Positions 770 to 14,048 of a stretch of 64,000 bases of DNA are shown here, piece by piece; within the stretch, counting starts at the first letter, position 1, and each line of letters opens with the position of its first letter. The position numbers and the translations under genes were made by a program. This DNA comes from a virus. The stretch spans positions 62,001 through 126,000 of IMG/VR virus record IMGVR_UViG_3300043788_000114; one strand, written 5' to 3'. The notes beneath the pieces were generated by a model. The model was not told the origin of the DNA. It worked only from the letters and a program-made list of their open reading frames with translations, and made no database searches.

Positions 770-930
770 GCGCTGAGTGGAGGCCGGGGGCCGCAAGGCA
801 CTGGGTCCGTTCTCGGACGTAAACCGAGTGGTGGAGGCGGCGGCAACGCCGCCCCTAGTTTTCGAGTACGCATGTAGAAGGTGATGGAGTTTGATTTCGG
901 ACGTGGGTTCAACTCCCACCGGCTCCACCA
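770..930 (+). ncRNA. ssrA: tmRNA, 3' (acceptor) piece of a permuted ssrA
   Basis: The end of this segment (about 865-930) matches the conserved 3' part of tmRNA: GCATGTAG (870-877), GTGATG (881-886), then a T-arm GTGGG-TTCAACT-CCCAC and an acceptor strand ending GGCTCCACCA (921-930). CGGCTCC pairs with GGGGCCG at 1049-1055, that is, with a 5' end that lies downstream. GTGATG pairs with CATCAC at 1081-1086 (helix P2). Upstream there are hairpins GTCCG/CGGAC and a 7-bp GGCGGCG/CGCCGCC stem closed by a GCAA tetraloop (about 810-855). The exact 5' end is unknown; 770 is an estimate. Confidence 0.8.
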
Positions 931-1048
931 AGAAGCACTTGAACGAGAAGCGCCGACTTACGATCATGAACACAACGTCTCTGTTTTCGGCTAACTCAAA
1001 AAAGCGAAGCTCGTTGGCTGTCGCTCAATGGTTCGAGTGTTTCTTTGT

Positions 1049-1215
1049 GGGGCCGTCACGGTTTCGACGGAATTAGAGGACATCACGCAGTTCATGCCGG
1101 ATGCTGTGGCCCACGAAACGGGACAACAGAAAACTAGGTGCAGAACCATTTGCACTGCCAATGGCTGCTTAAACACCAGTCATTCGAGGGTGGCCGCAAT
1201 ACTCGTCAAAGAACC
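1049..1215 (+). ncRNA. ssrA: tmRNA, 5' (tag-coding) piece of a permuted ssrA
   Basis: Begins GGGGCCGTCACGGTTTCGACGG, the tmRNA 5' consensus (acceptor 5' strand plus D-loop TTCGACGG), followed by CATGCCGG. After an A-rich stretch the tag reading frame starts at a GCA resume codon (1140) and reads AEPFALPMAA, stop TAA at 1170-1172. The Ala-Ala end is typical of proteolysis tags. The order (CCA end at 930, then 118 bases, then this 5' end) is that of circularly permuted two-piece tmRNA. The tmRNA rescues stalled ribosomes and marks the unfinished protein. The 3' end of the piece is estimated. Confidence 0.82.
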
Positions 1216-1393
1216 ATGCGGCAACAAATTCTATGCCCGAGAATCGGAGAAAAAAGCAGCGGAGAAGGAAAGTCCTGCGACAAATCGAGCGGCGCAGGCA
1301 GTTCCAGCGAGTCAATGAAATCCTGTTGCGCTCCGCTTTCGGGGTAGAATGGAAAAAGTACCGCCAGCGTGGAATCGCGGTGCCGTAAGTTTC

Positions 1394-13135: not shown

Positions 13136-13210
13136 GCGGGTTTAAGCTAGTTGGCAAACTGCCTGCCTCCAAATCAGGACTCAGGGGTTCGATTCCTCTA
13201 ACCCGCGCCA
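13136..13210 (+). tRNA. tRNA-Trp (CCA)
   Basis: Acceptor GCGGGTT/AACCCGC, loop ctccaaa (CCA) with a C31-T39 mismatch, T-loop TTCGATT, G73 as in Trp, CCA encoded. Confidence 0.9.
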
Positions 13211-13211
13211 T

Positions 13212-13287
13212 CGCGACGTAGCTCAGGTGGTGGAGCGCCGATCTCATAAGTCGGAGGGCGAGGCTTCGAGTGCCTCCGTCGCGACCA
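13212..13287 (+). tRNA. tRNA-Met or -Ile2 (CAT)
   Basis: Acceptor CGCGACG/CGTCGCG, D-stem GCTC/GAGC, anticodon stem CCGAT/GTCGG, loop ctcataa (CAT), T-loop TTCGAGT, A73, CCA encoded. The T-stem has C53-G61 instead of G53-C61. It may be lysidinylated Ile2. Confidence 0.85.
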
Positions 13288-13293
13288 AGTTTT

Positions 13294-13388
13294 GCCGGAA
13301 TCCTCGGGCGAGGCGCTGGGATTTATAACCCCGGTTGTTGTCGGTAGATTGCCGATGTGCGAGGGATCATACCCCTCTTCCGGCCCCA
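13294..13388 (+). tRNA. tRNA-like gene with long variable arm, possibly Ile (TAT)
   Basis: Acceptor GCCGGAA/TTCCGGC and encoded CCA with C73. D-arm CCTC-GGGC-GAGG has a 4-base loop. The anticodon arm holds TTTATAA: with an A31-C39 mismatch the loop gives TAT (Ile). If the stem is G-C closed instead, the loop is enlarged to 8 bases. A class-II-like variable arm TCGG-TAGATT-GCCGA follows, which is not expected for Ile. T-arm GAGGG-ATCATAC-CCCTC has a non-canonical loop. A decayed or unusual tRNA. Confidence 0.55.
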
Positions 13389-13390
13389 GT

Positions 13391-13467
13391 GAGCGCGTCG
13401 TATAGCGGCTGATTATACCTGCCTCTTAAGCAGGCTGACGCTGGTTCAAATCCAGCCGCGCTCACCA
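13391..13467 (+). tRNA. tRNA-Lys (CTT)
   Basis: Acceptor GAGCGCG/CGCGCTC, D-stem GTAT/ATAC, anticodon stem CCTGC/GCAGG, loop ctcttaa (CTT), T-loop TTCAAAT, A73, CCA encoded. Confidence 0.93.
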
Positions 13468-13474
13468 AAGTTTT

Positions 13475-13560
13475 GGGATCGTACTCGAATTGGATGCAGA
13501 GACCTGACTTTTAATCAGCGGGGAAACCCAATGGGGGTTCGAGTCCCCCCGGTCCCACCA
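13475..13560 (+). tRNA. tRNA-Lys (TTT) with an extra variable hairpin
   Basis: Acceptor GGGATCG/CGGTCCC, loop cttttaa (TTT), T-loop TTCGAGT, A73, CCA encoded. Between the anticodon arm and T-arm lies GGG-GAAA-CCC, a small extra arm that Lys tRNAs normally lack. Length 86. Confidence 0.85.
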
Positions 13561-13564
13561 AGTT

Positions 13565-13641
13565 GCTCCCGTATCGGCGCTGTCTTCTAAACAGCAGGCC
13601 GTAGACGGATGACGCGGGTTCGACTCCTGCCGGGAGCGCCA
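13565..13641 (+). tRNA. tRNA-Arg (TCT), D-loop relocated
   Basis: Acceptor GCTCCCG/CGGGAGC, anticodon stem GCTGT/ACAGC with loop cttctaa (TCT), T-arm GCGGG-TTCGACT-CCTGC, G73, CCA encoded. Only 7 bases (TATCGGC) lie before the anticodon arm and 17 after it. CGGC pairs with GCCG after the anticodon arm, and the D-loop-like TAGACGGATGA follows. Total length is normal. Confidence 0.88.
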
Positions 13642-13647
13642 TGTTTT

Positions 13648-13725
13648 GCCGCTGTACCTCACCCGCCTCCTAAGCGGGATTCGAGTAACTGGATGATGCC
13701 GGTTCAACTCCGGCCAGCGGCACCA
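13648..13725 (+). tRNA. tRNA-Arg (CCT), D-loop relocated
   Basis: Acceptor GCCGCTG/CAGCGGC, anticodon stem CCCGC/GCGGG, loop ctcctaa (CCT), T-arm GCCGG-TTCAACT-CCGGC, A73, CCA encoded. Seven bases (TACCTCA) precede the anticodon arm. After it come GAGTA, pairing back with TA(C)CTC, and ACTGGATGAT with the GGA element. Confidence 0.88.
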
Positions 13726-13730
13726 GTTTT

Positions 13731-13807
13731 GCTGCCGTACCGGGTCGCCCTCCGAAGGCGAATACCGTAGATGGAGAAGGCAGGTTCGAGTCCTGTCGGC
13801 AGCGCCA
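13731..13807 (+). tRNA. tRNA-Arg (CCG), D-loop relocated
   Basis: Acceptor GCTGCCG/CGGCAGC, anticodon stem TCGCC/GGCGA, loop ctccgaa (CCG), T-arm GCAGG-TTCGAGT-CCTGT, G73, CCA encoded. TACCGGG precedes the anticodon arm. CCGTA after it pairs back, and GATGGAGAAG carries the GGA element. Confidence 0.88.
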
Positions 13808-13811
13808 GTTT

Positions 13812-13889
13812 GCAGGGTTAACTCAGTCCGCTCAGAGTGCCTCTCCTACAAAGAGGAAGCCGCAGGTTGAAATCCTGCACCCTGCACCA
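13812..13889 (+). tRNA. tRNA-Val (TAC), atypical
   Basis: Acceptor GCAGGGT/ACCCTGC, D-stem ACTC/GAGT, anticodon stem CCTCT/AGAGG, loop cctacaa (TAC) with C33 instead of U33, A73, CCA. The T-loop TTGAAAT has G56 and the D-loop AGTCCGCTCA has CC in place of GG, so the 19-56 contact seems swapped to C-G. Confidence 0.82.
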
Positions 13890-13894
13890 AGTTT

Positions 13895-13967
13895 GCCGGT
13901 CAAGCACATGCGGATGTGTACTCCCTTGGTAAGGGAGAGGCAGAGAGTTCGATCCTCTCGACCGGCC
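13895..13967 (+). tRNA. tRNA-Thr (GGT)
   Basis: Acceptor GCCGGTC/GACCGGC, anticodon stem CTCCC/GGGAG, loop ttggtaa (GGT), T-arm GAGAG-TTCGATC-CTCTC. Only CCA, with no separate base 73, follows the acceptor strand, so the encoded end is one base short. Confidence 0.85.
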
Positions 13968-13973
13968 CAGTTT

Positions 13974-14048
13974 GCCGATGTAGCTCAATGGGAGAGCATT
14001 CCCTTGATAAGGGAAAGGTCAGTGGATCGGTACCACTCATCGGCACCA
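13974..14048 (+). tRNA. tRNA-Ile (GAT)
   Basis: Acceptor GCCGATG/CATCGGC, D-stem GCTC/GAGC, anticodon stem TTCCC/GGGAA, loop ttgataa (GAT), A73, CCA encoded. T-loop ATCGGTA has A54. Confidence 0.92.

What the first reader, a model, noticed from the sequence alone, without database searches (positions are those of the whole stretch)
13565..13807. Three tRNA-Arg genes with anticodon arm and D-loop in swapped order
In Arg (TCT), (CCT) and (CCG) only 7 bases separate the acceptor from the anticodon arm and 17-19 bases separate the anticodon arm from the T-arm; normal values are about 19 and 5. In each, TA-N-(C/T)(G/T)(G/C) before the anticodon arm pairs with a matching sequence plus TA after it. 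Then comes a D-loop-like stretch with GGA in the middle (ACGGATGA, CTGGATGA, ATGGAGAA). G18-G19-A20 are thus conserved, and A20 is the main arginine identity base in E. coli. Acceptor, T-arm, anticodon and CCA are intact, so these look functional but with a moved D-loop.
Basis: seen in the sequence. Interest (0 to 1): 0.9.

Follow-up and report, generated by a model that had tools for sequence, protein, structure and literature searches.

The report
Phage tRNAs with swapped inner arms
Three arginine tRNA genes in this phage belong to a large phage-linked family of transfer RNAs, missed by gene finders and apparently undescribed, in which the D-loop block and the anticodon-arm block have exchanged places while the contacts that fold a tRNA seem to be kept, which would mean that bacterial protein synthesis accepts a tRNA wired in a different order from the universal cloverleaf.

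Summary
The three genes (13565-13641 TCT, 13648-13725 CCT, 13731-13807 CCG) are tRNAs in which canonical positions 10-21 (D-stem 5' strand plus D-loop) and 22-45 (D-stem 3' strand plus anticodon arm) have changed places: A-B-C-D became A-C-B-D. I found 203 distinct members on about 280 mostly viral loci, including cultured Streptomyces, Rhodococcus, Microbacterium and Bacteroides (crAss-like) phages. An exact pattern for the commonest type hit 3 times in 84,980 prokaryote genomes. Anticodons read only Arg (six kinds) or Ile (three). The moved helix and the 15-48 Levitt pair covary. Base 20 is A in 137/140 Arg and T in 63/63 Ile; A21 is invariant. Swapped Arg genes supply anticodons that ordinary tRNAs of the same locus lack (1 overlap of 90; 26 expected). 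Written in canonical order, 193/203 are called as tRNAs with the right anticodon; in natural order, 2/203. Most likely they are functional tRNAs that keep the L-shape and are charged by host ArgRS/IleRS. Expression, charging and 3D structure are untested; why phages keep this layout is inference. I found no published description in the open-access papers searched.

The parts
13565..13641 (+). Swapped tRNA-Arg(UCU): acceptor 13565-13571, U8A9 13572-13573, N22 13574, D-stem 3' strand CGG (23-25) 13575-13577, N26 13578, anticodon arm 13579-13595 (anticodon 13586-13588), 13596-13598 AGG, D-stem 5' strand CCG (10-12) 13599-13601, U13 13602, A14 13603, G15 13604, GGA (18-20) 13607-13609, A21 13612, C48 13613, T-arm 13614-13630, acceptor 3' 13631-13637, G73CCA 13638-13641
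13648..13725 (+). Swapped tRNA-Arg(CCU): acceptor 13648-13654, U8A9 13655-13656, N22 13657, D-stem 3' strand CTC 13658-13660, N26 13661, anticodon arm 13662-13678 (anticodon 13669-13671), ATTC 13679-13682, D-stem 5' strand GAG 13683-13685, U13 13686, A14 13687, A15 13688, GGA 13691-13693, A21 13696, U48 13697, T-arm 13698-13714, acceptor 3' 13715-13721, A73CCA 13722-13725
13731..13807 (+). Swapped tRNA-Arg(CCG): acceptor 13731-13737, U8A9 13738-13739, N22 13740, D-stem 3' strand CGG 13741-13743, N26 13744, anticodon arm 13745-13761 (anticodon 13752-13754), ATA 13762-13764, D-stem 5' strand CCG 13765-13767, U13 13768, A14 13769, G15 13770, GGA 13773-13775, A21 13778, G48 13779 (G15-G48), T-arm 13780-13796, acceptor 3' 13797-13803, G73CCA 13804-13807
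13136..14048 (+). tRNA array holding the three genes (ordinary Trp, Met, Lys CTT, Lys TTT before; Val, Thr, Ile after); gaps from Lys(CTT) to Ile are 4-7 nt, consistent with one polycistronic precursor
9491..9566 (+). The only ordinary tRNA-Arg called in the window, anticodon ACG; together with the swapped TCT, CCT and CCG genes it covers the arginine codons

Best explanation
These are functional elongator tRNAs with a rearranged chain topology. Relative to a normal tRNA, the block 10-21 (D-stem 5' strand plus D-loop) has exchanged places with the block 22-45 (D-stem 3' strand, anticodon arm, start of variable region), so the chain runs 1-9, 22-45, 10-21, 48-76. Each of the three new joints (9 to 22/23, 45 to 10, 21 to 48) connects residues that are already neighbours in a normal tRNA core (9-12-23 and 10-25-45 triples; 8-14-21 triple next to the 15-48 pair; established tRNA structure, from memory), so the D-stem can still stack on the anticodon stem and G18G19 can still dock into the T-loop. 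Host ArgRS charges the Arg members through A20 and the anticodon, and host IleRS the Ile members. They then read Arg and Ile codons in phage mRNA, replacing ordinary tRNAs in the phage set. Shown: sequence, covariation, isotype-specific bases, distribution and complementarity. Inferred: transcription, L-shape, charging, decoding, and any advantage (possibly escape from host enzymes that recognise the normal D-arm/anticodon-arm order).
For: Covariation on 45 distinct sequences chosen without requiring the helix: moved D-stem pairs 43/45, 45/45 and 31/45 paired, each with two-sided changes; 95.8% of all cells paired versus about 38-47% when partners are slid. With no helix requirement, 204 of 218 distinct hits have at least 2 of 3 pairs. 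Of 203 members: A21 203/203; R15-Y48 is A-U or G-C in 193 (shuffled mean 156, max 168 of 5000); N20 A in 137/140 Arg and T in 63/63 Ile; N73 A in 63/63 Ile. In E. [quoted passage not shown] Anticodon loops are normal (U33, purine 37). In canonical column order ARAGORN/203 with the right anticodon, versus 2/203 in natural order. Swapped Arg anticodons are duplicated by an ordinary tRNA in the same locus 1 time of 90, versus 26 expected on permutation, minimum 14 of 5000. No record examined carries an ArgRS over the family cut-off, 0 of 42, all 14 control genomes positive, so the host enzyme would have to charge them. The window genes lie in a same-strand array with encoded CCA.
Against: No RNA, charging or structure data. 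RNAalifold on the MAFFT alignment does not itself choose the 3-bp helix (some rows are misaligned there), and single-sequence folding gives it only for gene 1. The 10-25 pair is often missing (143/203). ARAGORN also accepts some wrongly re-ordered controls (3 to 135 of 203), so that test supports but does not prove the exact block boundaries. Swapped Ile genes show no complementarity (5/15, expected 6.1). Members are related, so shuffles overstate significance. In part of the sample T20 in Ile is built in by the search pattern.
Confidence: 0.85

Rival explanations
1. They are simply D-armless tRNAs, as in some mitochondria, with an extended anticodon stem and an enlarged variable region; the D-loop was not moved but lost, and the GGA stretch does something else.
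For: Rfam aligns the CCT gene exactly so, with D-arm deleted and an insert in the variable region. D-armless mitochondrial tRNAs are functional (PMC7609411), and an engineered D-armless tRNA-His works in E. coli (PMC11551756).
Against: The inserted stretch has the full D-loop signature with isotype-specific base 20, invariant A21 and a covarying 15-48 pair, and the helix before it pairs with the bases after U8A9. Loss plus unrelated growth does not predict this.
Confidence: 0.1
2. The unusual layout is kept because it lets phage tRNAs escape host enzymes that attack or tag normal tRNAs (anticodon nucleases, other tRNA-cutting defences, modification enzymes), while still being charged and used. 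(An add-on to the best explanation, not exclusive of it.)
For: Nearly phage-only distribution: 45 viral stretches versus 3 hits in 84,980 genomes for the same pattern. Phage tRNAs are known to counter tRNA-cutting defences (PMC10264068, PMC11555353). Isolated hosts span Actinomycetota and Bacteroidota.
Against: Anticodon loops are normal, so nucleases that read only the loop should still cut. No specific host enzyme is identified. Restriction to Arg and Ile is not obviously predicted.
Confidence: 0.35
3. The RNAs are tRNA-like regulators, decoys or ligands (for example of the Ro60-like proteins some of these phages encode), not tRNAs used in translation.
For: A Ro60-family (TROVE) gene lies in the window's tRNA region and in a few related phages: 5 of 36 records over cut-off. 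Ro proteins bind tRNA-like Y RNAs (general knowledge).
Against: Most records with swapped genes show no TROVE hit. Anticodon-level complementarity to the ordinary Arg set and isotype-specific bases 20 and 73 are expected only for charged, decoding tRNAs.
Confidence: 0.04
4. The gene order is scrambled but the RNA is rearranged after transcription into a normal cloverleaf, as for circularly permuted tRNA genes.
For: Permuted tRNA genes exist in algae and one archaeon and mature through a circular intermediate (PMC3978253).
Against: Here the gene starts and ends with the acceptor stem and encoded CCA, the rearranged blocks touch without intervening sequence, and three cuts and ligations would be needed.
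Confidence: 0.01

Closest known systems
Canonical class I tRNA-Arg / tRNA-Ile (Rfam RF00005)
   Same: 7-bp acceptor stem, 5-bp T-stem with TTCRANN loop, 5-bp anticodon stem with U33, CCA (often encoded), A20 in Arg, A73 in Ile, A14, R15-Y48, G18G19, A21
   Different: Order of the D-loop block and the anticodon block is exchanged; 7 nt instead of about 19 before, and about 18-19 instead of about 5 nt after the anticodon arm; missed by standard finders
D-armless mitochondrial tRNAs (e.g. mt-tRNA-Ser AGY) and engineered mini-HisT
   Same: No D-arm between acceptor and anticodon arm
   Different: Those lose the D-loop; here a complete D-loop motif and D-stem strand lie between anticodon arm and T-arm. 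The known ones are mitochondrial or engineered (PMC11551756)
Circularly permuted and split tRNA genes
   Same: Rearranged order of tRNA segments in the gene
   Different: Those exchange 5' and 3' halves and are restored to a normal cloverleaf by processing; here the ends are normal and internal blocks are exchanged in an RNA that needs no rejoining
Non-canonical bacterial tRNAs (tRNA-Sec, tRNA-Pyl, allo-tRNAs 8/4 and 9/3)
   Same: Departures from the standard cloverleaf used on cellular ribosomes
   Different: They change stem and loop lengths, not the order of arms; here stem lengths are 7/5 and the order changes
Phage tRNAs that evade tRNA-targeting defences
   Same: Phage-encoded, in clusters, may replace host tRNAs during infection
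   Different: Known evasion is by anticodon-loop changes (PMC10264068); here the loops are normal and the topology differs

Membership tests
Canonical cloverleaf tRNA | 7-bp acceptor stem closing the molecule, N73-CCA | tested here: met
   7/7 paired in all three window genes, CCA encoded; helix 1 99.0% paired over 45 sequences
Canonical cloverleaf tRNA | T-arm of 5 bp with TTCRA loop next to the acceptor 3' strand | tested here: met
   99.1% paired
Canonical cloverleaf tRNA | 5-bp anticodon stem, 7-nt loop with U33, meaningful anticodon | tested here: met
   93.3% paired; loops CTTCTAA, CTCCTAA, CTTCGAA etc.
Canonical cloverleaf tRNA | D-arm hairpin between acceptor and anticodon arm; 4-5 nt or class II variable region | tested here: not met
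   7 nt before and 18-19 nt after the anticodon arm
Canonical cloverleaf tRNA | Recognised by standard tRNA finders | tested here: not met
   ARAGORN overlaps 8 of 336 gene instances; none of the three; the CCT gene reaches RF00005 only in permissive mode, with the D-arm deleted
Canonical cloverleaf tRNA | Charged and used on the ribosome | not testable with these tools
   Needs RNA and protein experiments; indirect support from identity bases and complementarity
D-armless (mitochondrial-type) tRNA | D-loop/T-loop contact bases absent | tested here: not met
   G18G19, A14, R15, A21 and a covarying 15-48 pair are present, displaced
Circularly permuted tRNA gene | 3' half precedes 5' half, intervening sequence between acceptor ends | tested here: not met
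   Genes begin and end with the acceptor strands
tRNA-Sec | Extended acceptor branch, UCA anticodon, RF01852 above threshold | tested here: not met
   31.1 and 24.6 bits against a cut-off of 47; 7/5 branch; anticodons TCT, CCT, CCG
Phage tRNA evading nucleases by anticodon-loop mutation | Altered anticodon loop | tested here: not met
   Normal loops in nearly all members

The most novel reading that the evidence does not exclude
A different way of building a working tRNA: phages exchanged two internal blocks of tRNA-Arg and tRNA-Ile, keeping the L-shape and synthetase recognition but changing the chain topology, and selection keeps it because host tRNA-targeting enzymes do not recognise the rewired molecule. 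It would be the first non-cloverleaf tRNA class used by cytosolic bacterial ribosomes.
Probability: 0.3. Interest if true: 0.98.

Novelty: new variant of a known kind. Interest (0 to 1): 0.95.

Why it matters
[quoted passage not shown] This family is a natural test case, present in cultured phages of laboratory Streptomyces strains and of Bacteroides. If functional, it shows that the order of arms in tRNA is not required, only the 3D contacts are; it separates synthetase recognition (A20 works from a displaced loop) from chain order. It also means that phage tRNA inventories, and conclusions on codon supply drawn from them, omit hundreds of Arg and Ile genes because the search programs assume the cloverleaf order, and it gives a possible new chassis for orthogonal tRNAs.

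Tried and rejected
Chance or pseudogene: rejected (356 real hits versus 1 reversed and 0 shuffled; strong covariation). Host chromosomal gene family: rejected for most (3 of 84,980 genomes by exact pattern; 1 of 299 Pseudomonadota by covariance model, the known one). Those three hits are a 4-kb MAG contig, a MAG contig with 32 ordinary tRNAs that looks like a phage array, and one Paramesorhizobium isolate where the gene sits beside a tRNA-Gln near a ParB-like gene, perhaps a mobile island (mobility not proven). Phage-encoded cognate ArgRS: none over cut-off in 42 records. Ro60/Y-RNA partner: present in only 5 of 36 records over cut-off. Ile complementarity: not found. RNAalifold and single-sequence folding were uninformative for the 3-bp helix. 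BLAST with one common TCT type found no isolate. Kehishuvirus 'tikkala' was first taken as an Arg case but carries a swapped Ile(GAT) with two acceptor mismatches. The ATG and ATC hits are ordinary tRNAs misread by the descriptor.

Full report
What is there. Between 13565 and 13807 three genes lie on the + strand in a tRNA array. Each has a perfect 7-bp acceptor stem, a 5-bp anticodon stem with a normal loop (CTTCTAA, CTCCTAA, CTCCGAA), a T-arm and an encoded CCA, but only 7 nt before and 18-19 nt after the anticodon arm. The 7 nt read TA-N-[CGG|CTC|CGG]-N, and after the anticodon arm comes [CCG|GAG|CCG]-TA-R-NN-GGA-NN-A-N. ARAGORN and Rfam call some twenty other tRNAs in the window but not these. 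With filters relaxed, RF00005 aligns the CCT gene at 40.3 bits by deleting the D-arm, and the other two match tRNA-Sec below threshold. So the RNAs are visibly tRNA-related, but not as cloverleaves. The window is part of a 138,516-base virus record with phage-type replication genes.

The family. A pattern for the displaced D-loop plus T-arm found 32 viral stretches, many of them with the same 7/18-19 layout. Further patterns and a structure-based scan gave 205 distinct hits; removing two ordinary tRNAs misread by the descriptor (anticodons ATG and ATC) leaves 203 distinct genes. Anticodons are TCG 48, TCT 45, CCT 30, ACG 11, CCG 5, GCG 1 (all Arg) and TAT 44, GAT 14, CAT 5 (Ile, CAT taken as the AUA-reading Ile type). 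A covariance model (R1) scores swapped genes at 46 bits or more and ordinary tRNAs at 42 or less, with one relic-like hit at 41. The scan did not use the anticodon or base 20. Among 2,181 ordinary tRNAs of all isotypes in the same loci, no other amino acid appeared in the swapped layout. The seed patterns did favour GGA and GGT loops, so rarer isotypes may be missed.

Who carries it. Cultured phages: Streptomyces phages such as Gilson, Comrade, Mildred21, Karimac and dozens of others, mostly unannotated at these positions; Rhodococcus phage NiceHouse; Microbacterium phage A3Wally; crAss-like Kehishuvirus 'tikkala'. Uncultured: the 735-kb LR756501, crAss-like cr130_1 and bajarodcaudo virus 1. 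In Mildred21 a swapped Arg(TCG) is annotated as tRNA-Phe(gaa), the swapped TCT as 'tRNA-OTHER', and the swapped Arg(ACG) and Ile(GAT) are not annotated. The TCT-type pattern hits 45 viral stretches but only 3 of 84,980 bacterial and archaeal species, and the model finds only the already known case in 299 Pseudomonadota. It is therefore essentially a virus-borne family.

It is an exchange of two blocks. With canonical numbering the order is 1-9, 22-45, 10-21, 48-76. Evidence: (i) The displaced D-stem covaries: on 45 sequences selected without requiring it, the three pairs are formed in 43, 45 and 31 rows, all with two-sided changes; slid controls fall from 95.8% to about 38-47% of cells paired. 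Without any helix requirement 204 of 218 distinct hits have at least two of three pairs. Many exceptions at the third pair are a one-base bulge type (TGG(C)/G(Y)GCA), my reading of the sequences. (ii) The loop keeps A14, R15, G18, G19 and an invariant A21 (203/203), and the base before the T-stem (48) covaries with R15: A-U or G-C in 193/203, shuffled maximum 168. The CCG group, including the window gene, has G15-G48, as known from E. coli tRNA-Cys (general knowledge). A14, R15 and GG were required by the descriptor; A21 and base 48 were not. (iii) Writing the natural columns in canonical order makes ARAGORN/203 with the right anticodon, against 2/203 in natural order; wrong boundaries or a reversed block give 3-135, so ARAGORN is lenient about the D-arm, and the correct order is simply best. 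(iv) By established tRNA structure (from memory), the new joints 9-22/23, 45-10 and 21-48 link residues already in contact in the core triples 9-12-23, 10-25-45 and the 8-14-21/15-48 layers, so the fold could be kept. This was not modelled here.

Likely function. In bacteria A20 is the main arginine determinant and unique to Arg; Ile uses the discriminator, anticodon and D20/D21 among others (PMC9976931). Swapped Arg genes have A20 in 137/140 (two of the three exceptions can be re-read as GGA shifted by one base), swapped Ile have T20 and A73 in 63/63 (T20 is partly built into the pattern, but Ile genes found by other routes also have it). No ArgRS gene over cut-off occurs in 42 records, so the host synthetase must charge them if they are charged. 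In loci with at least ten ordinary tRNAs, the anticodon of a swapped Arg gene is also present as an ordinary tRNA in 1 of 90 cases, against 26 expected when swapped sets are permuted among loci (minimum 14 of 5000). In the window, ordinary Arg ACG plus swapped TCT, CCT and CCG cover the Arg codons, of which CGG, AGG and AGA make 24%, 9% and 7% of Arg codons in a sample of window ORFs. This is what a decoding role predicts. Ile shows no such pattern (5/15, expected 6.1).

What is not shown. No expression, charging, modification or structural data exist here. The reason for the layout is open: escape from host tRNA-targeting enzymes is plausible because phage tRNAs do counter such defences (PMC10264068, PMC11555353), but anticodon loops are normal and no host enzyme is identified.

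Novelty. Ten full-text searches of the open-access literature and a review of non-canonical tRNAs with no mention of phages or permuted arms (PMC7609411) gave no description of this layout. [quoted passage not shown] Subscription papers and preprints were not searched. I classify it as a new variant of a known kind: it works like a tRNA, but fails the cloverleaf definition on arm order, which was tested.

Noticed in passing
window 13293-13389 (+): A class II tRNA-like gene (7-bp acceptor, long variable arm, anticodon loop TTTATAA, very short D-loop) between tRNA-Met and tRNA-Lys, missed by ARAGORN and Rfam; anticodon may be UAU with a leucine-like body.
   Followed up: no
window 10221-11645 (+): Ro60/TROVE-family protein (phrog_850 RNA-binding; TROVE over cut-off) inside the tRNA region; also in Gilson, Mildred21 and two related records.
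   Followed up: partly
window 838-1263 (+): Permuted two-piece tmRNA, tag AEPFALPMAA; RF04321 at 75.2 bits.
   Followed up: no
window 9491-9566 (+): The ordinary tRNA-Arg(ACG) has a D-loop without the usual GG (CAACTGAAGAG).
   Followed up: no
window 7384-7455 (+): tRNA found by Rfam (46.3 bits) but not by ARAGORN.
   Followed up: no
L009 7323-7396 (-), also in L111: Relic-like gene with swapped D-stem TCCCG/CGGGA, displaced TAATGGT loop and T-arm but a degraded anticodon arm.
   Followed up: no
L251 5521-5849 (-): Bacterial RNase P RNA class A (146.8 bits) on a viral contig that also carries four swapped Arg genes.
   Followed up: no
L066 7644-8058 (-): GOLLD RNA (280.7 bits) on a viral contig with swapped Arg and Ile genes.
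   Followed up: no
L073 16989-17064 and 20479-20555: GenBank record of Streptomyces phage Mildred21 labels a swapped Arg(TCG) gene tRNA-Phe(gaa) and leaves a swapped Arg(ACG) unannotated.
   Followed up: yes
L113 15815-15891 (-): Only isolate bacterial chromosome with a swapped gene (Paramesorhizobium deserti, Arg TCT with CCA), about 200 bases from a tRNA-Gln, near a ParB-like gene: possible mobile island.
   Followed up: partly
L331 607-683 (-): The one swapped Arg(TCT) gene with GGT instead of GGA in the displaced loop.
   Followed up: no
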